Source of the DNA: Coniochaeta sp. PMI_546
Lineage: Eukaryota; Ascomycota; Sordariomycetes; Coniochaetales; Coniochaetaceae
Reading direction: 5' to 3'
Assembly (NCBI GenBank): GCA_021432605.1
Contig: MU271155.1
Span: forward strand, 496,001 to 560,000
Length of the DNA: 64,000 bases
The position numbers were made by a program, and so were the translations under genes. A model generated the notes under the pieces. The model was not told where the DNA came from and ran no database searches. It worked only from the letters and a program-made list of their open reading frames with translations. This document shows, one piece after another, positions 5,816-63,014 of this stretch. The stretch's first letter is position 1. Each line of letters starts with the position of its first letter.

Positions 5816-7125
5816 CTAGGCCTCCCGCTTACCAAGAATGAGTGTCCCGACGATAGCTTCCTTCTTCTCCAGCCCCTTCCACCCCTCAAGAGCAGGCGTA
5901 TCAGCAAACAGGCCAAGGGCATGCTCCGCCGGCCATCTATCTCCAAACACGGATGCCTCCGTGACCAAGTCCCTGATATGCCGAGTCTCCTCCGGCGTGA
6001 GATGAACGTGCATGGCTGCAAAGTTCTCGGCAATGTACTTGAGCGTAATGGTTCTTGTCATGACATCAGCAACCGCGCCTCTCACGTATCGAACGAAAAA
6101 TTGACGAGGAACTCACCCAGGGATAGGAAAGATATCATCCCCCTGCGCCAACAGCCACGCCAGCGCGACCTGACTCACCGTCACCCCTTTCCCATCGGCA
6201 ATCGTCTTGATGGCATCCACGAGCTCCATGTTTCTGTAAAAGTTTTCCCTCGAGAATCGGGGGTAGAACCGACGGATGTCGCCCTCATCAAAGTCATCTG
6301 GTCCTTGGAGGCCGCCGCTAAGCAGCCCGCGGGAGAGGGGTGAGTAGGCGACCACAGCAACTCCGAGCTCGCGGCAGGTTGACAGCAGGCTGTGCTGGGG
6401 ATCTTCGATTTCGGTACTGAAGACGCTGTATTCCATTTGGACGGCTGCAATGGGGTGCACGGCGTGCGCGCGGCGGAGGGTGGTGGCGGAGACTTCGGAG
6501 AGACCTATGTGGTGGATTTTGCCCTGTCTTTGAAGGTGTTAGTTGGGTGTCGGTTGTGTGTGCTAGGCAGAATTCTGGTGTGGTGTCAGAGGGAGAACTC
6601 ACTCCTTCAACTTCACCATCTCGGCCACAATGAGCTCGACTGGGGTCGAACCGTCGAGACGATGGGGATAGTAGAGGTCAATGTACTCAACACCGAGCCT
6701 CTTGAGGCTCTTCTCAACGGCTTCGGGCACGTAGGCGGCGTCGCCACGGAACGTGAAGCCGTTTGGCAGCATTATGGCGCCGAATTTGGTGGCAAGGAAG
6801 ACATCCTTGCGCTTCTCCGGGTTGAGGGCGAGCCACTTACCGACGATCACTTCTGCGTCTCCCTAGGATATCGCGCAAGTCAGCATCGAACAGAGTAGTT
6901 TCGTCGAACGCATGCGGTTCGGTGGCCTACGTAGGCATCGCTCATGTCCCAGAACGTGCATCCAATCTCGTAAGCGTGGTCCAGGATGGCAAGCCGCTCA
7001 GGATCGGGAATTGGAGTCGACTTCCGGGAACCGGGGAAGCCCAATCCCATGACACCAAAGCCTATTCTGGGCACTAGAGGTCCATTATTTCCCAATGGTC
7101 GCAGAATAGGTGTCGTGGGACCCAT
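5816..7125 (-). CDS. Aldo/keto reductase (YakC/AKR13-like)
   Basis: Four exons (6931-7125, 6603-6862, 6117-6527, 5816-6053) give 367 residues; introns are 68, 75 and 63 bp with GT-AG ends, and the summed frame closes exactly. The (beta/alpha)8 reductase fold is shown by the tetrad Asp60 and Tyr65 (WDMSDAY), Lys91 (TKFG) and His132 (YYPHRLDG), by the [14 protein letters not shown] strand (split by intron 2) and by IFPIPGT, which ends strand 8 and is split by intron 3. Such enzymes use NADPH to reduce aldehydes and ketones in the cytosol. It lies 400 bp downstream of a Zn2Cys6 regulator gene on the same strand, which may control it. Substrate unknown. Confidence 0.93.
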
Positions 7126-11622: not shown

Positions 11623-13081
11623 CTAGCTACCTCCATCCAAAAGCATTAGCTCTATACTAGTCAGGATGGCTCCGACCTCGCCAAGCAGACTATTAGGCTT
11701 CAGTGGTTGAGAGACATAAAACTGCCACATGTTAGAAACGCCGCAAAGCGACTGGACCAAAGTCTTCCCTGGCTAGAACAATACTCATATCAAACGTTGT
11801 CGTCGAGTTTATGCTGCAAACGTCAACCGTCAGGTTGTATCCCAACGTTCCGTCACCAAGATCCAGAACAGCATTGTGCTGTAACCAATTAAAGGCTTTC
11901 TTCGCAGCGGTGAGATATTCGGAAGCAGTCACTCCATCCGCCGCATCGAGGTACCCCAGCCGAACTCCTCGCGCCATAGCATGTGCGAATAGCCCAGTCG
12001 CACTACTCTCGAGGTAGTTGCCGTTCCGGTGTGCGAAGTCCATAACCTGCCACCAAGCACCGCTCTCGTGGTCTTGTGCCAGAAGTATGGACTTCATCAG
12101 CGTGGAGAACATACCACGCAGCTCAGCGGCCGCGGGCTCGCTGGTCGGAATGACGTCGAGAGTGAGAAGGAGCCCAGTAACTGTCCAGCCCATGGCGCGT
12201 CCCCAAATAGATGAGCTGTGGCCACGGCATGTTAGATTGCCCCAGAAAGGGAAACGGTGGGTGGGATCATAGCCGTGGAACAATAGGCCTGATGAGTGAG
12301 AAAGACAGCGCTTCAGAATGTTGGAGAACTGAATCACCGCGCTGTTGTATTCAGCTGGAGCGGATGAAGGGTCAAACACTTGGGCATAGAGGGCTTTGAA
12401 CTGCGGAATGGAGAAGAGGCCATCTTGTGTGGTGACATTGGGGTATACGTAGTACCAGTATGATTCTGTATAATTGGGTTAGACATCGAACTTGGTATGT
12501 GAGAAGTGGTGGCAAGGCGGTAAGATACCATCTCTCTGCCGTTTGCGCAACAAATCAGCTGCATGGAGAGTTTGGATTGTTGACAGCAATGTTGTATTTC
12601 CTGTCTGTGCATATCTACTCCACGAGGTAAGTGAATAAGTATCATATTCGTGCGCTGCTTAGCTTGATGACAACCAATTAGGGGATTCCCAAATCTTGAA
12701 AGAGAAGGACACCGCTCACCGTCGAATGAATTCGGAACCAACGCTAAACTCGTCCAGTGGACTCGTTTTATCAGCAGTCACGTTGGCAAGGGCCGGGATC
12801 AGACCCGATATCACGAGATCCATATATGTCCCGTACTTCTCCGCCGTAGACGGAGGCAGCTCGACATGCTGCAACACCTCACGAATACCAGTTAACAAAA
12901 GCCCTGCCTCAATTATACTCGTTTTTACCGCGGCGTTGACCGTTACGCCCTGGTCTCGTGCGATGATGCTATCCAGCATGTTCAGGGCAAGGCTATTCGG
13001 CGGCGGTTTAGTCTTGCCCTTGGGAGTCGATGTCGCCGCCACTCCGAGAGGGAGACAGATGAGGTAGAACGGAGCTTTCAT
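11623..13081 (-). CDS. GH105 unsaturated rhamnogalacturonyl hydrolase
   Basis: Exons 12720-13081, 12529-12614, 11780-12465 and 11623-11721 give about 410 residues. The start at 13081 opens a signal-like stretch (MKAPFYLICLPLGVAATS); an in-frame Met at 13096 is also possible. Family marks are SIIEAGLLLTGI, RYAQTGNTTLLSTIQTLHAADLL, LLFHGYDPTHRFPFW with the likely catalytic Asp, and SSIWGRAMGWTVTGLLLTLD. These enzymes cleave unsaturated galacturonate from rhamnogalacturonan fragments. The 3' end is uncertain. The frame matching the family tail (FYVSQPLKPNSLLGEVGA) needs a weak donor, GTTCTA at 11779. The stronger donor, GTATTG at 11784, uses the same acceptor but shifts the frame and ends after nine residues. 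Confidence 0.85.
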
Positions 13082-40713: not shown

Positions 40714-43700
40714 ATGGCGTCAACGCGAGATCAGATCCTGGAGGCGCAGCGTCAGGCGGAAGCCTACTTCTTCGAGTGGAGAGCTGGCCGGGAGCAACTT
40801 GAATCTCAATACGAGGCGGCAGAGAAGAAGGAGGAATTTGAGTATCGGAAGGCCATCGAGTCGGTTGATGCTGAGTTTAAGCACAATATGCGGGTGGTGG
40901 AAGCCGGCGGACCTCAGTCTCTGGATATGTTGCAACAAGTCGTGGTCGACAAGAGGAATTTGAAGCTGAAAACCCTGGAAAATGATTATCGAGATACGCG
41001 CTCAAAGATGCGAACCCACTTCGAAAAGCAACTCCTAGAACACACGGAGAAGTTTAGTCAGGGCATCATCGACAAGATGACCGTTGCCGCTAAGTTCAAC
41101 CCAGTAAGTAGCATTGCAAAACCGTGTACAACATCGTATGGATTCGCCATATACTCACATTTCCAGACGCATCTCAGCACATTGTCAGGAAGTCGTCTGC
41201 CACCATCTTCAGCCCAACCGACGACGCTTCCATTTTACCAACCTCCGCCGCTAGGTAGCAATGGCGATAGTCGGTTTCCCATTTCCGACCATGGTCGGCA
41301 TCCCCTGCAATCAGGACCGTTCCATACCGGAGATTATGCTCGCTATAATGCACAACAAAGGTCGTTTCGCGAGGGAGACTATGCTCGCCATTCAGGTCAG
41401 ACTAAAGCACATGATGGTTACTCGATCTCGGCCGGCCCCCATAGGCACTCCGGATGGACCGATTCACCACATTCCGGCAACCCGAGCGATGCAAGAGTCC
41501 GCCATCCGCTACCCAGCCATCAGAAAATTCTACCATCCACACCTATAGTTGTCGATCCAGAGCGTGTCAGTGCACCACCAAGTACAGTCAGTAGTGTAAG
41601 TGCAGTTCCGAGACTGCTGCGGTCATTCTGCTAACTTTTTGAAGGCGAAGAGAAAATCTGACACCCAGGTTGACGGACAATCCGAACAGGCATTTTCAAA
41701 GAGGACCCGGTCCTTCGAAAGCCATGGCAACAGTGAGACCCGCCAACTTTTCCCCGGCGAAAAATCCCAAGACCAAGGTGAGAAGCCGCAAGCCCCCAAT
41801 GGGACCGACACGGCCAATCCTCCTACCCCTCGGCTCTCGCAGAAGACGTCCACTGTCAAGAGGACGATCGACTTCCACGAGGTTTATCAGGATGGGGATG
41901 CCGAGTACAAGCACATCATCATTCGGTATCCGCCGGGCGACGATGGTAAAGGTGACTGGTGGATCCTGAAGTGCGACGAGCATGGCGTCCACTTCAACAC
42001 GAATCCTCTCCACGGTGCCGCGAAGCATCTGCACAGCAATCAGCACAACAATATGTCCAAGGAGCACGCACTGGCTATCCGGGAGCTGGGGCATATGGTC
42101 TGGGACTGTACCAAGGAGCTGGCCGACAAGAACAATGAGGCGGTCAAGATGGCTTTCGCGAAGGGGTACAAGCCTTTCAATAGAAACCAACTCACCAAGA
42201 CGGAGCGGAGGAGCATGGGTTTCGCCGATCCCGAGACTACCCCGGCACGCAAGAACCATGCGCCGGCCTCATTTCAGCGGAAGAAGGCCGGTCTGGATTA
42301 TGTCAAGAATGGGTCCTCCAAGGAGTTTACTGGAGTTGTTTATCCGGTCGTTGCCGAGTTGTATCTCGGGTACTGGAGTAAGAACAAGACCCGCTATGTT
42401 GTGATGCTTTTGCCTTGGGGAGACCTTGACCCAACGGGCATAGAGGGTACTCTGATGGGTACCGGTCTTCTGGAGAAGCCTCCCAAGTGCTACACGATTG
42501 ACAGAGCCACGCGCGAAATCACTGGGTGGGCTGAAGGTTTCGAAGATGGAGGACGGCTAGTGACTAAGAGGGAGTTTCCAGTCATGTACTTTGACGGCGC
42601 TCAGTCGGTCGGCTGGCTACGGGCTAAGGACATGTCCCTCTTCAACTTCGAGGATCCGGATCCACAATCCATCCCCTACTACAATGAGGCCCGCAATAGG
42701 TATGCGAAGGCCCAACCTGAGAAGTTTGAGAGCTACCAACATATGAAGGAATACTACGCGGCGAATGGACTCCCGCCAAAGCTCTTCTCCTCCGTTCAAC
42801 AACCATCCCCGTCATTCCAAACGCCTGAGCCCCCCGCTACCTTTCCTACTTCGGAAGATGTCGCCAGGAAGTCTGCGGATAGAGAGCCCAACCCTGGCTC
42901 GGACGGCAACAGCTCTCCACGGCCGGAAGGTCCTGTCAAAGTGAATGGCCACGGAGGGCCGGTAGATGTCGAGATGCTTGATGTATCCAGGGCCGATGAC
43001 ACAGAATCTTATCATGACTCCGCCCCTTCCGACGCACCCGAGAGTGACGACGATGTGGAGATGGGCAATGCGGAGAGTCGGCGTACTTCCGTGTCTCATA
43101 AGGGACTAGGTGGGGACGAGGAGCCTTCCACGACGACAGTCGCTGACAAGCCGACTGCTGATCCTCCTGCAGCCGGCAGCGGCAGCGATAGCTCTGACGC
43201 GAAAACCGCTGCCATGGCTTCCCCTAGGAACAGACAAGGCGCCGATCACGCTGGTCACGAGATAGGCAAAGACACCGTCACGGCTGTGATGCAGACCACC
43301 GAGGATGCATCTATAACGTTGAAAGAGGCGGCCGATCGCGTGACGAGCGGAAGAACAAATGGGGCATCTTCGAGGCGCGAATCGGAGTCAAGCCCAAGCA
43401 CAGGATCCGACTCTAGAAAGGTTGTCAAGATACACGCTCGAAGATCGCGAAGTCTCAGAGCCAGTGAAAGTCCTTCCATGGCTGCTGCCACTCTGGCTAC
43501 CACCAATGGTGCTGTGCTTTCACCGTCATCTCCGCGGACCGAAGACTCCATCGTTCACAAGGCGCTACCGGCGAAGACAAGCACAGTGGTTGATGAGTCC
43601 CAGCCTAGTTCTCTTCCTGATGTCGCAAAGTCACCTGCGCCTTCTGCAAGACAAGCCGATGCGAGCACAACGTCGCCAACCGACGAACAGCAGCCGGTGC

Positions 43701-44619
43701 AGAGCTCTATATCTGCGCAGGTCACAGTCGCCGCACCGGTGCCGACGTCGAGGATGTCTGACAGCTCAAGCGCGATCTCATCTCCCCGGAGTACGTCGCC
43801 TACACCTATCGCAGCGCCAGCGTCTCGCTCATCTTCTGGAACCTCTACTCCAAAAGTCCTCCGTCCGGACGACACGGTGCAGGCGACTCGATGGCGCGCC
43901 GTCCGAGGCGAATCCAGTCCGCAGGCGGCAACTCCGCTTCAGCCACAGTCGACCGATCCTGCATCGGCTGAAAAGTCCGGCGCCGCGGCTTCTAAGGAAC
44001 AGTCTAAGGAACCGTCTGAGGAACCGTCTAAGGAACCGTCTAAGGGACCGTCCAAGGAAGGCTCCGTTCCGTCAGCCGGGATTCAGGGTTCAGCTACCAC
44101 AACTAGCCGGAACAGTACGCCATTGGGTGGCAAAATGGCATCCGAGGAGTTATTTGAGATTGCGTACTACGAGGACGACTCGGGCGGCAAGTTCCACAAA
44201 CAGAAGGACGGGCCATTTCTGCGTATAGTGGTCGATAAGCAGGCCAACATATGCGAGACAAGTCCTGGCCAGTCGACGGAAGTGAAGATCAGCCCGCACG
44301 ACATCGCGCGTGTCGATGTGAATCCCTTGGATGACAGCCCTGGCGCTCCCTGCATGGTGTCTCTTGAGCTCAAGGATGAAGCCAAGGGTCCGAAAAAGCA
44401 GCAGCTGGTGTTTGAGACGAGCAAGGCCATGGGCCGCGAGGAGGCTGGCCGCATCCATGCTCGGCGCTTTTGCGGTTGGGTCAAGAGAGTGAATGCTACT
44501 ATCGACTATCGCAACCACACGTGAGTGTCTTGCTTCGCACCTTTGGCGAGGACAGCGAGTACTAATTCCTCGGCAGATACAACTCGAGCAGACCTGCGAC
44601 GTCGTACACTCGTAATTGA
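40714..44619 (+). CDS. Large low-complexity protein, probably nuclear
   Basis: Four exons (40714-41103, 41167-41595, 41645-44520, 44577-44619) encode 1245 residues and the frame closes. Exon 1 is a charged coiled coil (LEAQRQAEAYFFEWRAGREQ through residue 125). Exon 2 is Pro/Ser/His-rich. Exon 3 holds a globular region, EYKHIIIRYPPGDDGKGDWW then KCDEHGVHFNTNPLHGAAKH with a Cys/His pattern that could bind zinc, and GVVYPVVAELYLGYW. A long Ser/Pro/Thr-rich disordered part contains six SKEP-like repeats. Near the C-terminus is a second folded part (LFEIAYYEDDSGGKFHKQKD to GRIHARRFCGWVKRVN). Basic patches (KRTRSF, ARRSRSLR) suggest a nuclear site. The 63 bp first intron has no in-frame stop. No named family recognised. 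Confidence 0.88.
43991..44062 (+). repeat. Six-unit 12 bp coding tandem repeat
   Basis: Six 12 bp units of TCTAAGGAACCG type (1-6 changes in some) encode SKEQ, SKEP, SEEP, SKEP, SKGP and SKEG inside the disordered region of the large protein. Such arrays often vary in copy number between strains. Confidence 0.85.
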
Positions 44620-46102: not shown

Positions 46103-48350
46103 ATGTCCACCCCTCGATCCCAACGCAGCGACCCGCTGGACTCGACTACCTCCCCGTCGAAAGGCGCCTACACCTACGATGCCTCCACCTCCACGCCCTC
46201 GGGCGCCCCGAACCCTACATACGCTACCTTCTCCCCGACCACACTAAGCGCGACCACCCCGACCGCGAGCTCGGCTGCCAAGAGGAGGAGCACCATCCTG
46301 GTGCACCAGAAGTCGCCGTTACTCCTCGCCACCCCGCCGCAGATCACCCGAGCCCTTGCATACAGCCATCCGTTCCTCCTACCGCTCAATAAGCTCGTTG
46401 GTCTGCTTAGCTGGACGACAGGCGATCCATGGGAGAGCTTCCTCATGGTCGTAGCCTTTTGGGCTACGGTCCTGTACGGCGACGTGATAATACGGGTTGC
46501 CGGACCCTTGGTGCTGGTCCTCCTTCTCATCGGAGGCATGTACGGCCGGAGATACAGTCCGCTGAGCAGCAGCGGTTGGACCGATCCTGGCCTGGGCACC
46601 GCTGATGGCAGCGCTCTCAGCGCCGCGGACGCTGCCAAGACGAGACGAGCCGGGAAACAAAAGAACCTCTCTGTGGATGCTACGCTGGACAGGCAGTCCA
46701 AGACCGGCGGCAACGGCGCAGACAACGCATCCAGCGCCAGCGGACATGTCCGCGCCCGATCGCACAGCACCGTGGCAGCTGCCGAGGCGACCTCGACGCG
46801 ACACCAGAAGACGCTGGACGAGATCGTCAAGACGCTCAAGGAGTTCACCGGGCGGTGTAACATCCTGCTCGAGCCCCTCCTCGAGCTGACCGACTTCCTC
46901 AGCACCCAGCGCTCGCCCACCTCAGCCACCACCAGGCCGGCCCTGACGACCTTGTTCGTCCGCATCCTGCTGTGCACGCCCTTCTGGTACGCGCTCACGC
47001 TGCCGCCCTGGCGCATCATCACCACGCGGCGAGTAATCCTCGTCTTCGGCACCGTCGTGCTGACCTGGCATTCGCGCGTCACGCGCGTCTCGCGGGTGAT
47101 TCTCTGGCGGAGCGCTACGGTCCGGAGGGGGCTGGCGCTCATCACAGGACTGCGATTCGAAGCACCTACGAAATCAACTGCAACCGGGAGCGAGAAGACG
47201 AAGAAGGACGCCGGTGATAAGCTGGGGGCCGCTAGCGCCAACAGCGGAGGTGATGCGACTTCGGGCAAGAGCAACGGCGCCACGACAACCGGCGCAAAAG
47301 GTCCGCAGCGCGAGTCGGAGCTCACCAACGCCCTGCGCCGGGCGAAGAACGGCCGCGATGCAGGTGTCAGATTTACATTTATCATATACGAAAACCAGCG
47401 ACGGTGGGTTGGCCTGGGGTGGACGAACAGCCTGTTTGCTTACGAGAGGGCTGCGTGGACAGACGAGCACAACAACCCCGTGCCGCCTAGGGATGAGTTT
47501 GAACTACCAGAAGTCGAGGACGGGAGCAATATGCGCTGGATGTGGGTAGAAGGCAGCCGTTGGAGGGTCGACGGTGTCCCAGATGAAGCTGTCTCGACGG
47601 GAGACTCACAAGCAGAATGGGACTATGACGGCCCTGGAGGGAGGATGGGGTGGGTTTACTACGATAACAAGGTATGTTCTTCACGTCATATATACAGCGG
47701 TTCATGGCAAGGTTACTGATCTCTGTCCTCAACAGTGGCAAAACGGCCGTCGTGGCCAAGACGGCTGGGGCCGATGGACGAGACGAAGGAAATGGTACCG
47801 CGACGCCGAGCTTGTCGAGGTAGAAGAAGACGACAGCAGCAGCGGCGCGCTCCCAGCATCCTCCCAAGCCACCATCAACATCACCGAGCCCGACGAGGCA
47901 GCGCCTTCCTCTCTACAGCCGCAGCTGGACAGCAGCGCCTCCACAACCACATCTTCCAGCAGCTCTAAACCCGAACTCCCACCCCGGCGGACCTCTCTGT
48001 CCCAACGAGCCTTCTCCCCCACCCCACCATCCCTATCCAACGCCACCGTCTCGAACCCGGAAGACGACCGCGAGGGGGAGGACGAGTATAACAACGACTC
48101 GGCCTCGATGCTGAGCACGTCGTCGAAGTCCGCGCGCTTCGGCTCCGTCAAGTCCGGCACCGGTATGCCGGCGCTGAGGAGGCGGGGTACGGACTCGTCT
48201 ACTTCGCGCCGCACCGGGGGGCGACGCGCTAGCGACGTTGCCGAGGAGGAGGATGCTGCTGTGCTAGGGACGAGCCTCGGCCTCACTCTTGGGAGGGAGG
48301 GGGACAAGGGGTGGGGGGTTGGGGATGAGGTTCGGATGGGGCTGGAGTAG
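46103..48350 (+). CDS. Peroxisomal membrane peroxin, Pex23/Pex30 family (dysferlin domain)
   Basis: Two exons (46103-47671, 47736-48350) around a 64 bp intron encode 727 residues. A Ser/Thr-rich N-terminus leads to two hydrophobic blocks (about 112-146, FLMVVAFWATVLYGDVII onward, and about 276-330, ILLCTPFWYALTLPPW onward). Then comes the DysF domain: N-part FIIYENQRRWVGLGWTNSLF and WTDEHNNPV, C-part WRVDGV, EWDYDGPGGRMGWVYYDNK and, after the intron, WGRWTRRRKWYRDAEL. Yeast relatives Pex28-Pex32 sit at ER-peroxisome contacts and control peroxisome number and size. The tail is acidic and Ser-rich. Which member of the family it is cannot be told without alignment. Confidence 0.92.
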
Positions 48351-54711: not shown

Positions 54712-55746
54712 GCGGGTTGAGCTCCATTTTAAGATCCAAGGTCAGGTAAACAGTGACTGCCCAATTAGGAAATTGCAAGTACACGTGTATCTACCTTACT
54801 CAAGTGAGACGTAGTTTTAGCGCCGTTGTGGCGGTGTCAATCGATCGCCGGATCACAGATGGCACGAGAGCAGGAGAGGTCTTGGAATCATGGTTTCGAG
54901 CGCCGTGAGGTGTTGGGTTGGTGCACACATTGCAGGGGCTACTTCGCTTCTTTCGTATTCTATTCGGCCGATGTCGCAGTCCTTGTTTTCTCTTACGCGA
55001 TGCTGTTCCTTCCGGAGCCCGGCAGCGCGGGCGGCCTCTACTACACTGCGGTGATCGGCATTATAACCTGCCTGTTACGATTTGACGCAATGTGCCATTA
55101 CACTAGGCAGATTTGGCCCAGATGCAGAGTATGCCTTATGATTGACCGACCTTAGGTCTCGCTGCTGTTTCTGGTTTCTAATCAAGGATAGAAGATTGTA
55201 CCGTGTGCGACAGAAGACTCTTGGTTTTTTTTTTCCCCGGTGACGTATTGTGACAACACAAAGAAGCTGGCAAAGAAGCTGCTGGCACAGTCCGCCCCCT
55301 GTTCTGGGCTGCATCCATCCAGTCATCCCGTGTCCCGGCTACCGGGTTGGCGAATGATTCTGAATTTATGAGGCGGGCGATCACAGCCGGATGGGCGGCT
55401 AAACTCCTTTCTCAATTTCAACATGCCAGTTGACACAAATTACCGACAGCACGAAAAGTACGCCTCTGAGTCCTTAGGTGGTTTCCAGGTAAGACAATCG
55501 TTGGTGATTGTCGTGCGACTAAAGTCTGGTGCTAACAGTATCTCCTCGTCAGAGTGCTTCAGATACATTCATCCGCCTCTCCCGTCTCCCATAAAGCTGT
55601 GGCAGACGCGATCAGCTGGTGGTAATAGCAGTCCTGGAAAACGAGAACCAGACTGTTTCTTTTCCATGGATCTCAAGATATGTGCTCATGTAGTCTAAAC
55701 GAGCTTGTCACAGGACCTCAGCCTCCGTGTACATAGCCATTATCGC
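54712..55746. other. Intergenic, no gene seen
   Basis: About 1 kb. A plus-strand frame at 54826-55155 has two hydrophobic stretches but no start context or partner exon; not called. Confidence 0.45.
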
Positions 55747-56440
55747 TCATGCTCCGTGTACTAACCGCTTGTAGACTGTTTGACTGTCATCAAGCCGAGA
55801 GCCTGATGGCATGAACGGATCCGTCTTATACAAGTCTCGATATGGCGATTTGCCATCAGCTCTTTCTACATCCGGTGTCTTCAGTCAGCACAAGAGGTCT
55901 TCGGGGGCTTTAGTAACAGCCTTGAGCAACGGATATATGCAAGAAGATTCTTACCTGGAAATTCTCCCACAGTTCTTCCACATGTTTTGCCTTTTCTACA
56001 TCGCACAACAGCTCAGTTCTGCATTCCCGAAGCACTTTCAACTGCCTGTCAAGCTCGTTCAGCGTTCCTTCCCACCAGTCATCTGCTCCGATTGTCCAAT
56101 TTAGAGGATTCGGCCTGGTCGCTTCGATCACGGCTGCGGTCACAGCCACTTCGTTGTCCCATCTTTTAATGCTAGCCAGGTCTTTAGCAAGAGGTTCGCA
56201 CACCTTGTCAAACCTTTTCAACTCCTCATTTAGTTCGCTGTCCACGTGCCCAACACTGTGCTTAAATAAGCGGATTTGCGCCAACAGGCTCATCAACCGT
56301 TTTTCCAGGTTATCCCGGACGGTACGACCATTGGGGTTTGTCACTGAATCCGAATCAGAAGGGTTTTCGAACGCCGTCATCTTCGCAAAGTCTTGTTGTA
56401 AGTCGTTGTATCTCACTGAAAAGGGAGACGAGGAAGCCAT
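55747..56440 (-). CDS. Array gene 1: small helical protein, unknown family
   Basis: Two exons (55955-56440, 55747-55878) with a 76 bp intron (GTAAGA donor, GTGCTGACTGAAG acceptor) encode 205 residues; the junction is phase 0. The start MASSSPF is chosen because a TATAAAT box lies about 140 bp upstream (near 56580); the frame is open further upstream but would run past that box. The chain is almost all helix: NLEKRLMSLLAQIRLFKHSV, LNEELKRFDKVCEPLAKDL, then WTIGADDWWEGTLNELDRQL and ELLCDVEKAKHVEELWENF. The short second exon is polar. No signal peptide or domain recognised. It is the first of four like-built genes in a row. Confidence 0.75.
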
Positions 56441-57359
56441 CTTGATGAGCCTGACTAAGGTCTGGTGGTTCTTGGCAGCGATGTTTTGAGGTTCTTCGGT
56501 GTTCGTTTCGATTATCCGAGTCGTTGACAGCCGCAGAGCGATCCAGGGAGCTTTCCAGGGACACAAGGGAGGGGAGCTGTATTTATACATAAGAGCCAAA
56601 GGGGGAATCAATGAAGTTGGGACCGACTGAACAAGTGTTCAGCAGCATTCTTCGATTCAAGCGTGTCCTGTGTTAGGCACCTCTTAGAGCGTCAACCAGG
56701 TTCAAGATTTCTGGAAACATGAAATTGTGTGCTCCGGCTACCCATAAAGCGCGAATGTCTTTCATATCGAGTAGGCGCCTATTAATATGTGACATCTGTC
56801 TTGTACTTGGATCGGGTGGATATTCCAGGTCGTGTCTAGAAGCCTGTTCCACGTAGCACAAAGAGTCCAGGTTACAACTACCTTCAAGCCCGCATCCCAT
56901 TGTATCGATACTGCGCCAAATATGCATCTCGTACAGCACTTACAACCGCACAATCGATCAAACGATATGGCCAGCAAACCATCCTCTCAGCCCTTACTCT
57001 GGTCATGTAGGCTTGCGCGAGTGCGCATCAGGATCAAAGCCACGAGACATCGGGTAATCTTCACCATAAGGACTCTATCGGCAATGGTAGTCCATCAACC
57101 AATATCTTAGCATAACCCACGTGTCTATGCACTGCGTGTGATCAACGACAAACCGTGTTTTCGCGACAAAGTTGTCATGTTTCTTGATACGATACTGGCG
57201 GCCCCTGGCAGTGATCCTGACACTATCTGTGGTAGACTTGCAACAACTTCCTGCTGTTGTGGTCACGGTGACCCTGCGTGCCATAGAGCCCGATATTAGG
57301 GCACTTTTTTGCTTCTGAAAACGCCATACGATGCAGTTTTGTGTCATAGTTCTATAAAG
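56441..57359. other. Gap in the array, possible small or decayed gene
   Basis: Two minus-strand frames look protein-like but I cannot join them: MARRVTVTTTAGSC from 57284 to about 57120, ending near a GTGGGT donor, and a block at 56673-56939 (MSHINRRLLDMKDIRALWVA). They could be exons of one small gene or a decayed array member. Also holds the promoter of array gene 1 (TATAAAT near 56580-56588). Confidence 0.3.
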
Positions 57360-58112
57360 TCAACCCAAAGTTCCACCTTCTCCAGGGGCAGCGGGTGCTG
57401 TCTGTGAAACTTGCTGTATTGCATCCTGTGTCGCGACCTGTTCGGCATCGAGAACCTTCCATCCCGTCTTCAACAAGCCCTTCCAGCCCCGGATCCGATC
57501 GCCACATTCATCAGGGTTCGGTGGTGCCAGGCCCCAGGGCGATCTCTGGTCAACCAAGTCTTGTAAGTCAAAATGCTTCCACTCAAGATGGTGGCCGGCC
57601 AGGCCTCTAAGGTTAACAATGATCGTCTTACTCACCACAAAGGTCTGCTCGAATGAGGTGATGATGTGTCCCAGCTTCATCGTGTCAACTTCCAGAGCCA
57701 ACCTGATACTATCCAGCACCCTGTTCAAGTTGGCGATGTCCCCTTGAACGCCTTGCCACCGCCACAGATCTTTGATGTCTGACTTCTCCAGACCCTGAAC
57801 TACATCAAGCAGCCTTCTAACTTGTCCCGAAGATCTGTACCAGGCTCCCATGCTGTCGAAGCTTCCCCCCAGATCTATGCACATGAGTTCCATCTCCTTG
57901 AGTGAACTGTGCAGGTATTTCGACGTGTCAAGCAGCAGAACATCGTCGATCAAAGCCACAAGATCGCTCAGCTTCAGTCTCAGCTCCGTTGCTTGTTCTT
58001 TGCATAAAGTAGCCAGCTCTTCAACACTCTCGCTTTCTGTCTTGACTTCCATTATACAGTTCGACAGACTGTCGGGAGCGATAGTAGAGCTTCGTGCTGT
58101 GTTGGAAGACAT
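57360..58112 (-). CDS. Array gene 2: small helical protein, unknown family
   Basis: Two exons (57636-58112, 57360-57545) around a 90 bp intron (GTGAGT donor, GACCAG acceptor, phase 0) encode 220 residues. The intron has no in-frame stop, so keeping it would add 30 residues. An upstream acceptor (TTACAAG) is also possible but shifts the frame to an early stop. ATG 58112 opens the polar MSSNTARSSTIAP, then helices CKEQATELRLKLSDLVALID, LHSSLKEMELMCIDL and GQVRRLLDVVQGLEKSD. Trp pairs occur at LWRWQGVQGD, and the second exon has RGWKGLLKTGWKVL. TATA-like ATAAATA lies about 135 bp upstream. Similarity to the other three is in build and size more than in sequence. Confidence 0.7.
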   Translation of the reverse strand: MSSNTARSSTIAPDSLSNCIMEVKTESESVEELATLCKEQATELRLKLSDLVALIDDVLLLDTSKYLHSSLKEMELMCIDLGGSFDSMGAWYRSSGQVRRLLDVVQGLEKSDIKDLWRWQGVQGDIANLNRVLDSIRLALEVDTMKLGHIITSFEQTFVVSKTIIVNLRGLAGHHLEWKHFDLQDLVDQRSPWGLAPPNPDECGDRIRGWKGLLKTGWKVLDAEQVATQDAIQQVSQTAPAAPGEGGTLG

Positions 58113-58598
58113 TTTGTAAAGTTTGAAAGGCAAGCCTCTGAATATGCACTGCATTAATGAGGAAAGTCATGCTCCGCTGTCCCAGTGCTGACCTCTGTTG
58201 ACAGCAATGTCAATGGGGTCGAACAACACGGCCCAAGGACACGTATTTATGTGACAAAACAGTAGGTGAAGAGACCGAGTGACACATGGGGAAATATTCA
58301 GTATATTCCAGTCTCTATTTGCCATGAATCAACTTTATACCCACACGAGTAACAAGCCGAGACTGAACCTGAGATGAACATAGTCCATAGGTTTGAGACC
58401 AACGTGTCCCTTCTGTGCGGAGTCCGTATCGTCTATATAATTGTTTCGAGGGTCGAGTAATCATTCGTTATTCGATTTTGATCACGAAATATCGAGACCC
58501 AAACCTTGATCTCTCGTCGTGAAGCCACCAGGAAACAAACACGCCAGGCTCGAGGCTGCCCCGCTACCGCAGCGCCGCGACCCATCCGACTCATCTGC
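58113..58598. other. Intergenic between array genes 2 and 3
   Basis: Holds the array gene 2 promoter with ATAAATA at 58244-58250. No gene seen. Confidence 0.5.
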
Positions 58599-59375
58599 TT
58601 ACCGATTCTGGGCCACAAGAAGTGTAACTGTAAGGATTACGTTACACCAGATTTGGATTAGATGCTTCAATTGTGGGTAGGCTCGCGGGCTGAGGTGCTA
58701 TGGATGTGAATTGTGGTCAGCTGGCAGATAACGAGACAATTTGATAAAGCTATTTACGCAGGCTTCATATGTACATACCATCGGCATACTAGTCATTATT
58801 GTGTGGATCGCTTCGACTTTCGTTGTATCGTTTTTCATCTGGACCTGGTTGAGTTGGAGAGAGGCAACGAGCTGGGCGAGCTCGAGCTCCTGTGATGCCC
58901 ACCATTGCACCGCTTCCCCCAGATGAGCCTGTATAATATCCTTTTTCCGAGTTTTCTTGCAATGACTGACCCAGCAGTCCCAGTTTTGAATTCCGTGAGG
59001 AGCTTGGAAAACAAAGAAATCTCGGTCTGTAACCTGTCCGTAAAGCTTCTTGAAGTCAGACAGACACAGCGATCGTTCGCCTAGCTCGTGGCATCTAGTC
59101 GCCAGGGCATTCAGATATTGTGTTAACTCTCTCGTCATGGCGTGCGTCGAGTCCAGCATGTATTTTAATCCATACATCCGCTCCGCTATCGCCGTAACAG
59201 CCTGCTGGAACCTGATAGAAAGGGCAAGGCTCTCTTCGCCAATTGGTGACAATAAGAGGGTGAGTTCGGCGGCATGTCTGGTGCTCGCATCCAGGCGGCG
59301 ATGCAGCTCCTCTTCTGTTAAAGGAGTCGGCGGCATAAGCCCGGCTGGTGGACGCGGTTGCAGATGGCGCGACAT
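58599..59375 (-). CDS. Array gene 3: small helical protein with Trp-rich core
   Basis: Two exons (58779-59375, 58599-58697) around an 81 bp intron (GTATGT donor, CATAG acceptor, phase 0) encode 231 residues. A Pro-rich start (QPRPPAGLMPPTPL) leads into helices LTEEELHRRLDASTRHAAEL and ALSIRFQQAVTAIAERMYGL. The core FQAPHGIQNWDCWVSHCKKT then GEAVQWWASQELELAQLV matches array gene 4 position by position (F-P-G-I-W-W-S-H, then AV-WW). The last exon, PQLKHLIQIWCNV, resembles the last exon of gene 4. A TA-repeat TATA box (about 59502-59515) lies about 130 bp upstream. No signal peptide; probably cytosolic. Confidence 0.78.
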
Positions 59376-60235
59376 AGTGATTTTCTTCTGGATTGTATGC
59401 TGATCTGCCGAAGGGTTGAGTATTCCCACGAGGCTAGATGGTCTGATGCTAGGACTTGAAAATTGTCGGTTGGTAGCGAGAGACCAGGTTGGGAGGTTTC
59501 TTATATATATATATATTGCCAACGGAATGCCCTCATCCTTTTCTTACTTCAGAGTGCGTGAATATCTCATAATTATTTGCACTTTTCACTGAGGGGAGCT
59601 GGAGCGGTGAATGTGAACATCGAAAGAATCGACGGAAAGTCACTCATGATCATTGTCAGTAAGCGTGAATACGAAAGCTAATCTCGCCTTTCAGCCCATA
59701 CATGTGAGCATAGGAATGTGAGACGGCCAGATATGATAGACTGGACCTCTCTGTTGCCACTAAGAAGAAGTATGTACTTAGAGAGCCAAGGAAAGTCAAA
59801 GTGCGCTGAAGAGCCTATTTCCAGACATGGTATCATTGTCTGACAGACAACAAGTAAAAAGGGGAGGCCCACAGCTGTGAATCATCTAGGTTGCACTGGC
59901 CGGCTGAAACATCAACGCTCTAGTCCAGCGTAATATCTAGCATCGCGAAAGTGACATGTTTATTATTTGTTCTTCTTCTTTTACCCCCTCTTCAGCCCTC
60001 TTCTTTTCGCCCTTCTTGGCAGATATGTACTGTCGGCATAAGCAGACGTAGATATCACTTGCGGTGGATGAGTGCTTTGGTCATGGCAACACTAGAGCCC
60101 GATCGCTGCAAAGATGGACGCAACATGTGGCTCTGGAGCAACGTGAGGGGCCGTGGGACACTCTCTGGTACTTCCAGGCACAGTGAAAAGGGTGGCTCAT
60201 GATTGTTCGCGATCTCTTGGGGATCCAGACGTCAA
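59376..60235. other. Intergenic between array genes 3 and 4
   Basis: Holds the array gene 3 promoter with a TATATATATATAT run at 59502-59515. No gene seen. Confidence 0.5.
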
Positions 60236-60975
60236 TCAGCCCTGCAGTTCTCTTAAAGGAATCCCAAGGACTTGGGTGCACCAAGCCTCGATTTGCCTCA
60301 TGGCATCATCTCGCTGCAGACGGGATGACTAGAATCAATACAAATTAGTACCGACGCGGATAAAATCTTGAACGGACTAAGACTAGTACATGAGACACCT
60401 ACCTGAATCAATCTCTGATCCTGATTGATTTTGCAGACAAGATCGAAGTCTCTCCTCAGATCGACCATCCCCTTCTCCAGCGCCGTCTTGATGGTTTCCG
60501 CCCGACTGTATAATTCTTCCCACCAATCTACCGCCTCTTCGACATGAATTAGCTGTTTTTGGCAGGTTTTTCGCTCATGTGATGTCCAGTCGGTCCAGTC
60601 GGCGATTCCATACGGTGGTGTGAATGTCTCAAACTGAAACTCTGCGATCTTCTCATCCGTCTCTTTGGCGTCGACGAGGCTCTTTGCGTGCGTTTGCAGC
60701 AGTATGCAACGACTGTACATTCGCCTTACCCTCCCTCTCAGCTGTTGCGCCGTGGCATCACCCGGAGGGGCTTTGTTGTCTAAATACGCGAGTAATGCGG
60801 CAGTGTGCACCCGGAGTTTTGGCAGCTCGGCCTGGAGCAGGTGGACGAGCTCCTGGGCATCATAGTTGCTCGTCGACGTGTAGATCTGGATATCTGTGAC
60901 CATTTTCTTGCTTTGACTGAGGCGGAATCTTAAGTCCTCCTCCTTCTTTTGCGTGGTTGGCAATGGTAAAGACAT
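60236..60975 (-). CDS. Array gene 4: small helical protein with Trp-rich core
   Basis: Two exons (60403-60975, 60236-60313) around an 89 bp intron (GTAGGT donor, CTGCAG acceptor, phase 0) encode 216 residues. Helices: KKEEDLRFRLSQSKKMVTDI, DAQELVHLLQAELPKLRVHT and QQLRGRVRRMYSRCILL. The core FTPPYGIADWTDWTSHERKT then EEAVDWWEELYSRAETIKTA matches array gene 3. The last exon encodes RDDAMRQIEAWCTQVLGIPL. ATG 60975 was chosen over an in-frame ATG at 61020 because MSLPLP fits the short polar starts of its neighbours; TATAAA lies at 61196-61201. No known domain or signal peptide. Confidence 0.78.
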
Positions 60976-63014
60976 TGTGCCTATGCATCTGCCTTGCCAG
61001 ATTTGTGGATGATATTGCAAAAGATGTTCGTCAGAGTCAATGCTGTCATTTTCGTCGTACGTAGCGCCAATGAAGTGGGATCTTGCGCTTGTAGACGGCA
61101 GTGTTGTCTTCTTGATATCGGTACAGGTAGATATCTAGGACATTCTATGGCAACAAGTCCTGAAGATTTCGAGAAGAGCAAGCACGAGTCACGAGTTTAT
61201 AAGCTTGTCTGTGGCTACCCTGTCGAGGGAACGGAAGGCTACTACCGCTGCTCTCGATCGCTAAACCAGAGAATATTGGAAGAAGGAGGCAGCTGTGAAA
61301 GGTCACAAGTACCCAGCCTACCATACTTTACGCCAACGTGCGCAATGAACAGTACTATTTTGGTTCTTTGGGTAACACCGCCTACGCACAGTAGATTTTC
61401 GCTGCCCACGGCATATCTGATACGATTCCAAGCATGTCGATACAATCATGCGTGCTGGTATTACTGCGAGACTCTGGAAGAGACTGCCTCTAAGACCGCT
61501 CGCTTGAACAACTCATTCTACAACTCTCCTGAGCTGGCCTCAAGGGCACACTGTTAAAAACATGCTACACGCTCCGACATACTTACCTGCATGATTGTGA
61601 ATAAAGAGAGTCATTGTGGCTATCACAGTTTGCCTTGGCAGGAGCAATGGACACGATATCGTGATGCGGGACACTTCCCTGAATGAACCAAGACGACTTG
61701 CCAACCTGCCTGCATCCTTACCCTGACCCGTTGGCTCGCTGTAGCACTTTTCAAGTTTATGTACTGCACGGGAGTATACTCTATACTATACTTGTTGAGC
61801 CAAGAAACGTCCTAGCCGCAGCATCTTTGCCCTTTTCTTTTTGTCCCGAATTCTGACTTTGGCAGTCGTTCTTACGCTGCTTACCACACTACCTTAGACT
61901 TGCACCATCTAGACCTCTCCACTTCCACGTAATCTATCCTCCTTTCTATCTATCTCCCAGAATTAACACAGCAACTAGAAGTTGTTCTTTGTGACATACT
62001 CTGCAACACCGGCCACGAAAACACGCCCTGGTCAACAGTAACCCTATCGAAAAAAAGGTCGAGATGGCTCGGGCATACCACATCAAACAACATGGTTTTT
62101 CTCGAGATCATGACCATATTGGGCCTGTTTCTTCGGAGTCTTGTGCTCTGCGATGCCCCAAGCTGAGGTGCACCATCATTGGGAATGATCCAGAGACGGT
62201 TCAAGCCACAATCAAGGGAACAGTTGTCAGATAAATACTCGATGTTGGGTGGGGACCAGGACCTAGGAAGTTGCCTACACTACGATACCCGACGTAATCG
62301 AATTTAGCCGCGTCCAGGAGCCCAATCCGCGTGAAGCTCCACCGACTGGCTGTCCGTCAGGCTGCTTAGTGCTCAAGAAAAGGACTTTCCTTAGGATGGC
62401 AATGATCTGAGCCGGTATGCAGCTTGGCTTCGAATGATTGCGAGACAATCCGAATGATCCAAAATTTCTCTTGATGATCGGTATGCTTGCTGGCAAGGCC
62501 TTGAAACTACTACCCAAGGTACAGTACAGGCACAGAGATAGACCTTTGGGCATCATGCAGGTGTGATCGCCGGCCAGGGCACCTTGATTGAGAATCGTCG
62601 TTGGATAGAGTGCCTAAATGCAGTCAAAGGCGTGTATGAGGTTCGCTGGCATTGCACCGTGACAAGTCAGAATCCAGTCTAGACTTAGCAGTGCTCAACC
62701 ATTACTTCGTCCCCAAATCTCAGTCTTATACCTCTTACTAGATGCGACCGACACCAGGTGAGAGAGACCAGGATTGGGGTCAGGCGGAGATCCCTCACAA
62801 CCTCGCCGTGATCCTTCACGGTTCTCAACCAATCATAGGATGGCTTTTCCGAGCCATGTCAGCAATGGCTTCAGAACGTTATCAAGATAACCTCATCTCT
62901 CGACATCAACATATATTCATACCATATGCATCTTCCCCAACATAGTTTGTCGTTCGCTTTGTAATCGAAACTAGGAGTTGCTATATAGCCTTGCACTCTC
63001 GTTTGGCGAAGGAA
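60976..63014. other. Intergenic, no supported gene
   Basis: The plus frame 60994-61557 (187 residues, containing MATSPEDFEKSKHESRVYKL) overlaps the array gene 4 promoter and lacks a domain or splice partner. A minus frame at 62275-62556 is featureless. No repeat or transposon signs. Confidence 0.4.

What the first reader, a model, noticed from the sequence alone, without database searches (positions are those of the whole stretch)
55747..60975. Four-gene head-to-tail array of undescribed small helical proteins
Four consecutive minus-strand genes encode 205-231 residue, all-helical proteins without signal peptide or recognised domain. Each has two exons with one phase-0 intron (76, 90, 81, 89 bp) near the 3' end. 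Genes 3 and 4 share a clear core (F-x-x-P-x-G-I-x-x-W-x-x-W-x-S-H, then A-V-x-W-W), and gene 1 has a related DDWWEGTL helix. Gene 2 is linked mainly by build. This looks like an old tandem expansion that has diverged strongly, as seen in self/non-self recognition, conflict or host-adaptation genes. Function is inferred, not shown.
Basis: partly seen in the sequence, partly recalled or inferred. Interest (0 to 1): 0.75.

Follow-up and report, generated by a model that had tools for sequence, protein, structure and literature searches.

The report
Diverged four-gene fungal helical protein array
Four neighbouring genes in a Coniochaeta-like fungus look like very diverged copies of one small, probably all-helical protein gene of unknown function; they are interesting as a family, but nothing found ties them to recognition or conflict.

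Summary
The four minus-strand genes are there. They form two pairs: genes 3/4 (26% identical, z 22.3) and genes 1/2 (24%, z 6.9), so gene 2 is linked by sequence. Exon 1 alone gives the same (z 21.9 and 7.2). Between the pairs alignment is weak (local z 1.6-3.5; hhalign P 0.039). Gene structure supports common descent: each has one phase-0 intron 39 or 40 codons after a WW motif (WRW in gene 2). Gene 1's intron (76 or 89 bp) and gene 2's (90 bp or none) are uncertain. The genome is Coniochaeta-like by one neighbouring protein. No Pfam family reached its cut-off, no PDB fold matched at E <= 0.001, and 2 of 4152 database candidates passed E <= 10, both array genes themselves; distant orthologues could be missed. 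Two structure models are helical but poor (pLDDT 58.9, 53.7). The self/non-self reading is not supported: the nearest HET match is about 102 kb away, and no HeLo or NACHT match was found on the contig. Best reading: an old, perhaps lineage-restricted, tandem family.

The parts
60236..60975 (-). gene 4 (221 aa): exon 1 60975-60403, intron 60402-60329 (74 bp; 89 bp also possible), exon 2 60328-60236
   Evidence: best codon score of exon 1 in this frame
60577..60633 (-). F-x-x-F-x-x-P-x-G-I-x-x-W-x-x-W-x-S-H core of gene 4
60520..60525 (-). WW motif of gene 4, 39 codons before the intron
58599..59375 (-). gene 3 (231 aa): exon 1 59375-58779, intron 58778-58698 (81 bp), exon 2 58697-58599
58962..59018 (-). 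F-x-x-F-x-x-P-x-G-I-x-x-W-x-x-W-x-S-H core of gene 3
58899..58904 (-). WW motif of gene 3, 40 codons before the intron
57360..58112 (-). gene 2 (220 aa spliced, or 250 aa unspliced): exon 1 58112-57636, likely intron 57635-57546 (90 bp; 76 bp also possible with another frame), exon 2 57545-57360
   Evidence: unspliced form listed as P0002
57756..57764 (-). WRW motif of gene 2, 40 codons before the donor site
55761..56440 (-). gene 1 (196 aa): exon 1 56440-55955, intron 55954-55866 (89 bp), exon 2 55865-55761; with a 76-bp intron 205 aa ending at 55747
56072..56077 (-). WW motif of gene 1 (DDWWEGTL), 39 codons before the intron

Best explanation
One ancestral two-exon gene for an intracellular helical-bundle protein was duplicated in tandem; the copies diverged and each was duplicated again, giving the pairs 1/2 and 3/4. 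Shown: two pairs by sequence, and a shared donor position and phase relative to a WW/WRW motif. Inferred: each protein folds as three to four long helices with the tryptophan pair near the start of the last long helix. Inferred and unproved: they act as non-enzymatic, oligomerising or adaptor-type accessory proteins, each made from its own promoter, free to diverge because no catalytic site constrains them. I put about 0.9 on common descent of all four and about 0.4 on the adaptor-type role.
For: Pairs 3/4 and 1/2: z 22.3 and 6.9, 0 of 1000 shuffles each; 0 of 500 locally shuffled; exon 1 alone z 21.9 and 7.2, 0 of 1000 each. All six pairs score above the maximum of their reversed controls (genes 3/1 only by 58 to 57). 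Motif-to-intron distance 39, 40, 40, 39 codons in genes 1 to 4, phase 0 in 4 of 4 (noticed after the fact). In the 39 residues after the motif the family register ranks 1 of 158 for genes 3/1 (12 of 2000 shuffles), 2 of 182 for 3/2 (6 of 2000), 4 of 158 for 4/1 (55 of 2000) and 24 of 182 for 4/2 (223 of 2000). Of 211 TGGTGG sites in 221,005 bases, 4 have an open frame and a donor 38-41 codons on: genes 1, 3 and 4 and one unrelated site. Models of genes 4 and 1 show a similar order of long helices. At least one TATAWA within 400 nt upstream in 4 of 4 genes, background 0.15 per 400 nt. No signal-like N-terminus.
Against: Between the pairs plain alignment is weak: local z 1.6-3.5, 5 to 74 of 1000 shuffles reach the score; global z 1.1-2.8, 11 to 160 of 1000; exon 1 alone z 1.9-2.7, 16 to 49 of 1000; locally shuffled 7 to 36 of 500. 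hhalign probability 1.3%, P 0.039. A profile of 3/4 finds gene 2 at E 0.86, behind a non-family segment at 0.65, and gene 1 at E 7.1 among 3270 segments; a profile of 1/2 lists neither gene 3 nor gene 4. Anchored at the intron instead of the motif, 4 of 6 pairs lose the block signal. Exon 2 boundaries of genes 1 and 2 were chosen partly by resemblance, so full-length scores lean towards kinship. Models are poor, both were built from alignments of the same four exon 1 translations, and there are no expression data. The adaptor role has no direct evidence.
Confidence: 0.5

Rival explanations
1. Allorecognition or conflict genes: diverging partner proteins that signal non-self on hyphal fusion or act against mycoviruses or other elements.
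For: Strong divergence in a tandem array with no relatives found; the genome has many HET matches (87); in Neurospora lineage-specific genes often lie with HET-domain genes (PMC10684091, passages read).
Against: Nearest HET match about 102 kb away; no HeLo or NACHT match on the contig; no match to those families in the four proteins. Divergence between paralogues does not show rapid evolution within the species.
Confidence: 0.15
2. Two unrelated pairs: genes 1/2 and genes 3/4 are separate families that lie side by side by chance.
For: Weak cross-pair similarity; the F..P.GI..W..W.SH core is absent from genes 1 and 2.
Against: Shared motif-to-intron distance and phase in 4 of 4, register support in the block after the motif for 3 of 4 cross pairs, same orientation and neighbourhood.
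Confidence: 0.08
3. A diverged branch of a known helical family (BAR-like, HeLo-like, or a domain of a larger complex) whose sequence signal is lost.
For: Helical models; the Foldseek list for gene 4 shows generic bundles including BAR domains. The helix after the WW motif weakly matches BLOC-1-related complex subunit 7 (E 0.014 with gene 4, 0.21 with the 3/4 profile).
Against: No Foldseek match at E <= 0.001 for either model and the models are poor; no Pfam match over its cut-off; sequence matches to solved structures are weak, partial and scattered.
Confidence: 0.2
4. Some or all of the frames are not translated (spurious or decaying genes).
For: Exon 1 codon scores are about zero for genes 1 and 3 (-0.001 and -0.004 per codon) and the exon 2 scores are slightly negative; gene 1 also has an open frame on the other strand.
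Against: Two pairs similar at the protein level with intron position kept; best of six frames in 4 of 4; good start contexts.
Confidence: 0.06

Closest known systems
Neurospora lineage-specific gene clusters (PMC10684091; passages read)
   Same: clustered paralogues without recognised homologues in a Sordariomycete; the paper says paralogues from duplicates are often clustered
   Different: no HET match within about 102 kb; about 110 kb from the contig end, which need not be a telomere; lineage restriction only partly testable here
HeLo domain (PF14479) cell-death proteins
   Same: about 200 residues, helical, intracellular, in filamentous ascomycetes (recalled; the profile has 205 positions)
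   Different: no profile match in 4 of 4 proteins; the genome's 7 HeLo matches lie on other contigs
BAR-type helical bundles
   Same: generic long-helix bundle in a low-confidence model
   Different: no match at E <= 0.001; no Pfam match; TM-scores about 0.3

Membership tests
HeLo domain (PF14479) | match to the family profile over the curated cut-off | tested here: not met
   0 of 4 proteins; no HeLo match on contig C13
HET-domain or NLR (NACHT) recognition genes | HET or NACHT domain in the protein or in a gene close by | tested here: not met
   no match in the proteins; nearest HET match about 102 kb away, no NACHT match on the contig
Lineage-specific gene cluster (Neurospora type) | no homologues outside the lineage | tested here: inconclusive
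   2 of 4152 scored candidates passed E <= 10, both array genes, but the search needs shared 5-residue words; the same database gave 1558 relatives of the PEX24-type neighbour among 7996 scored
Lineage-specific gene cluster (Neurospora type) | paralogues clustered together | tested here: met
   single-protein searches of the genome found no further copy, though genes 1 and 2 did not find each other in them
BAR domain | BAR fold in a confident structure | tested here: inconclusive
   models with pLDDT 58.9 and 53.7, no Foldseek match at E <= 0.001
Fungal secreted effector | N-terminal signal peptide | tested here: not met
   no hydrophobic N-terminal stretch in 4 of 4 by a simple hydropathy scan; no dedicated predictor was available

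The most novel reading that the evidence does not exclude
A new lineage-restricted family of fungal helical-bundle proteins whose paired, strongly diverged paralogues work as interacting partners in recognition between hyphae or against genetic parasites, without HET or NLR genes nearby.
Probability: 0.1. Interest if true: 0.7.

Novelty: new member of a known kind. Interest (0 to 1): 0.33.

Why it matters
It shows how a shared intron position and one short motif can tie together tandem genes whose proteins have nearly lost sequence similarity, and it gives a small, well-bounded protein family, absent from the libraries searched here, for structure and deletion work. Tandem families of orphan genes are a known feature of filamentous fungi, so by itself the case is modest.

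Tried and rejected
Pfam on exon 1 translations and full proteins: only matches below the curated cut-offs. Solved structures by sequence with gene 4 and with profiles of both pairs: weak partial matches (best E 0.014, 0.0042 and 0.46), not taken as kinship. Foldseek on both models: generic bundles, best E 0.058 and 0.44. Prokaryote contigs (gene 3 exon 1 only) and viral contigs (gene 4 exon 1 only): 76 and 2 pattern matches, none confirmed. Plasmid records (1001 bases around gene 3): no match. Repeats in 55000-61200: 10 two-copy direct families of 16-27 nt, no sign of recent duplication. Bacterial promoter and terminator scan: near shuffle means and not suited to a fungus. Literature: listings (20, 8, 15 and 12 papers shown of 154, 8, 35,561 and 10,231; none found) showed no title or abstract start that I recognised as describing this family; only PMC10684091 was opened, passages only. 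No absence from print is claimed beyond that.

A profile search over 221,005 bases around the array listed no fifth member (best non-family E 0.41).

Full report
What is there. The window is C13:496001-560000 of a 33.5 Mb genome in 24 contigs. A PEX24-type protein in the window (46103-47719) is 90% identical to one of Coniochaeta ligniaria, 80% to Coniochaeta sp. 2T2.1 and 74% to C. pulveracea among the named rows, so the fungus is Coniochaeta-like; this rests on one protein. Four minus-strand genes lie between about 55750 and 60975. My models give 196, 220, 231 and 221 aa for genes 1 to 4.

Gene models. All four have A at -3 of the start codon and at least one TATAWA within 400 nt upstream (one TA run in gene 3; background 0.15 per 400 nt on one strand). 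For exon 1 the stated frame has the best codon score of six in 4 of 4, with a small training set of five segments from this window; genes 1 and 3 score about zero. Introns: gene 3, 81 bp, branch motif CTGAC 19 nt from the end; gene 1, 89 bp with CTGAC at 19 nt, or 76 bp with it at 6 nt; gene 2, 90 bp with TTGAC at 22 nt, or 76 bp with it at 8; gene 4, 74 bp with CTAAT at 16 or 89 bp with TTGAT at 21. The 76-bp reading of gene 1 gives 205 aa ending at 55747, which is the finding's start coordinate; codon scores do not choose between the two (-0.090 and -0.110). Gene 2's stretch is open in frame and coding-like, and the protein database lists it unspliced (P0002). I chose the exon 2 readings of genes 1 and 2 by branch motif and partly by resemblance to the other genes, so tests on exon 1 alone matter.

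Relationship. Local alignment with 1000 shuffles: genes 3/4 z 22.3 (0 reach the score), 1/2 z 6.9 (0), 4/1 z 3.5 (5), 3/2 z 3.1 (9), 4/2 z 1.8 (57), 3/1 z 1.6 (74); global alignment gives 14.8, 5.1, 2.8, 2.1, 1.1 and 1.6. Exon 1 alone: 21.9 (0), 7.2 (0), 2.6 (20), 2.7 (16), 2.6 (28) and 1.9 (49) in the same order. Locally shuffled controls: 0, 0, 7, 30, 33 and 36 of 500. Profile-profile comparison of the pairs: probability 1.3%, P 0.039. So the pairs are firm and the link between them is weak by sequence alone.

The link by gene structure. From the last W of WW (WRW in gene 2) to the donor site there are 39, 40, 40 and 39 codons in genes 1, 2, 3 and 4, phase 0 in all; I noticed this after the fact. 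The 39 residues after the motif put the family register first of 158 ungapped registers for 3/1, second of 182 for 3/2, fourth of 158 for 4/1 and 24th of 182 for 4/2, with 12, 6, 55 and 223 of 2000 shuffles reaching the score. Anchoring at the intron loses the signal in 4 of 6 pairs, the two firm pairs among them, as expected if the donor moved by one codon against the helix. In 221,005 bases, 4 of 211 TGGTGG sites show an open frame with a donor 38-41 codons on: genes 1, 3 and 4 and one unrelated site. Taken together I put common descent at about 0.9; this is a judgement, not a computed value.

Relatives. Single-protein searches of the genome found only the array itself: genes 3 and 4 found each other, genes 1 and 2 did not, so diverged copies elsewhere could be missed. 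In the large protein database gene 4 gave 1 of 269 candidates at E <= 1 (a 148-aa fragment identical to it) and the four-protein profile gave 2 of 4152 at E <= 10 (that fragment and gene 2 unspliced). The same database gave 1558 relatives of the PEX24-type protein at E <= 1e-10 among 7996 scored, many named from Sordariomycetes in the 120 listed, so such fungi are held; but the method needs shared exact words, and I estimate that orthologues below some 40% identity could be missed.

Structure. Models from four-row alignments of exon 1 translations: gene 4, pLDDT 58.9, helices 7-33, 38-68, 74-112, 127-137, 143-190; gene 1, pLDDT 53.7, helices 6-23, 36-62, 68-108, 119-161. The order agrees, but confidence is too low to claim a fold, and genes 2 and 3 were not modelled. 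Foldseek against PDB gave no match at E <= 0.001. By sequence the helix after the WW of gene 4 weakly matches BLOC-1-related complex subunit 7 (E 0.014; 0.21 with the 3/4 profile), which I do not take as kinship.

Context. Below the array lies a TAP-like hydrolase, above it an FMO-like monooxygenase on the other strand; the following 10 kb holds a long leucine-rich-repeat frame (repeat type judged by eye). HET: 87 matches in the genome (a lower bound; six frames, no introns), 4 on this contig, nearest C13:449465-449716, about 102 kb away. HeLo: 7 matches, none on the contig. NACHT: 16 at E <= 0.001, 3 of them under the cut-off, none on the contig. The Neurospora precedent ties many lineage-specific genes to HET genes and chromosome ends (PMC10684091, passages); this array shows no HET gene near, and its distance to the contig end is about 110 kb.

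Verdict. The tandem-expansion reading is well supported; the recognition or conflict reading is a guess that the context does not favour. It is a family absent from the libraries searched here, of a known kind.

Noticed in passing
window 58614-58670, minus strand: Gene 3 alone has a hydrophobic C-terminal stretch (19-residue Kyte-Doolittle mean 1.64 at residues 209-227), possibly membrane-associated.
   Followed up: no
window 60532-60975: The protein database holds a 148-aa protein identical to the start of gene 4 on a 2,689-base contig (P0001), perhaps from a second assembly of the same fungus.
   Followed up: no
window 6116-6862 and 11735-12478, minus strand: Aldo/keto reductase and glycosyl hydrolase family 88 frames.
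   Followed up: no
window 40714-44524, plus strand: Long open frames (306 and 974 aa) without a Pfam match at E <= 0.01.
   Followed up: no
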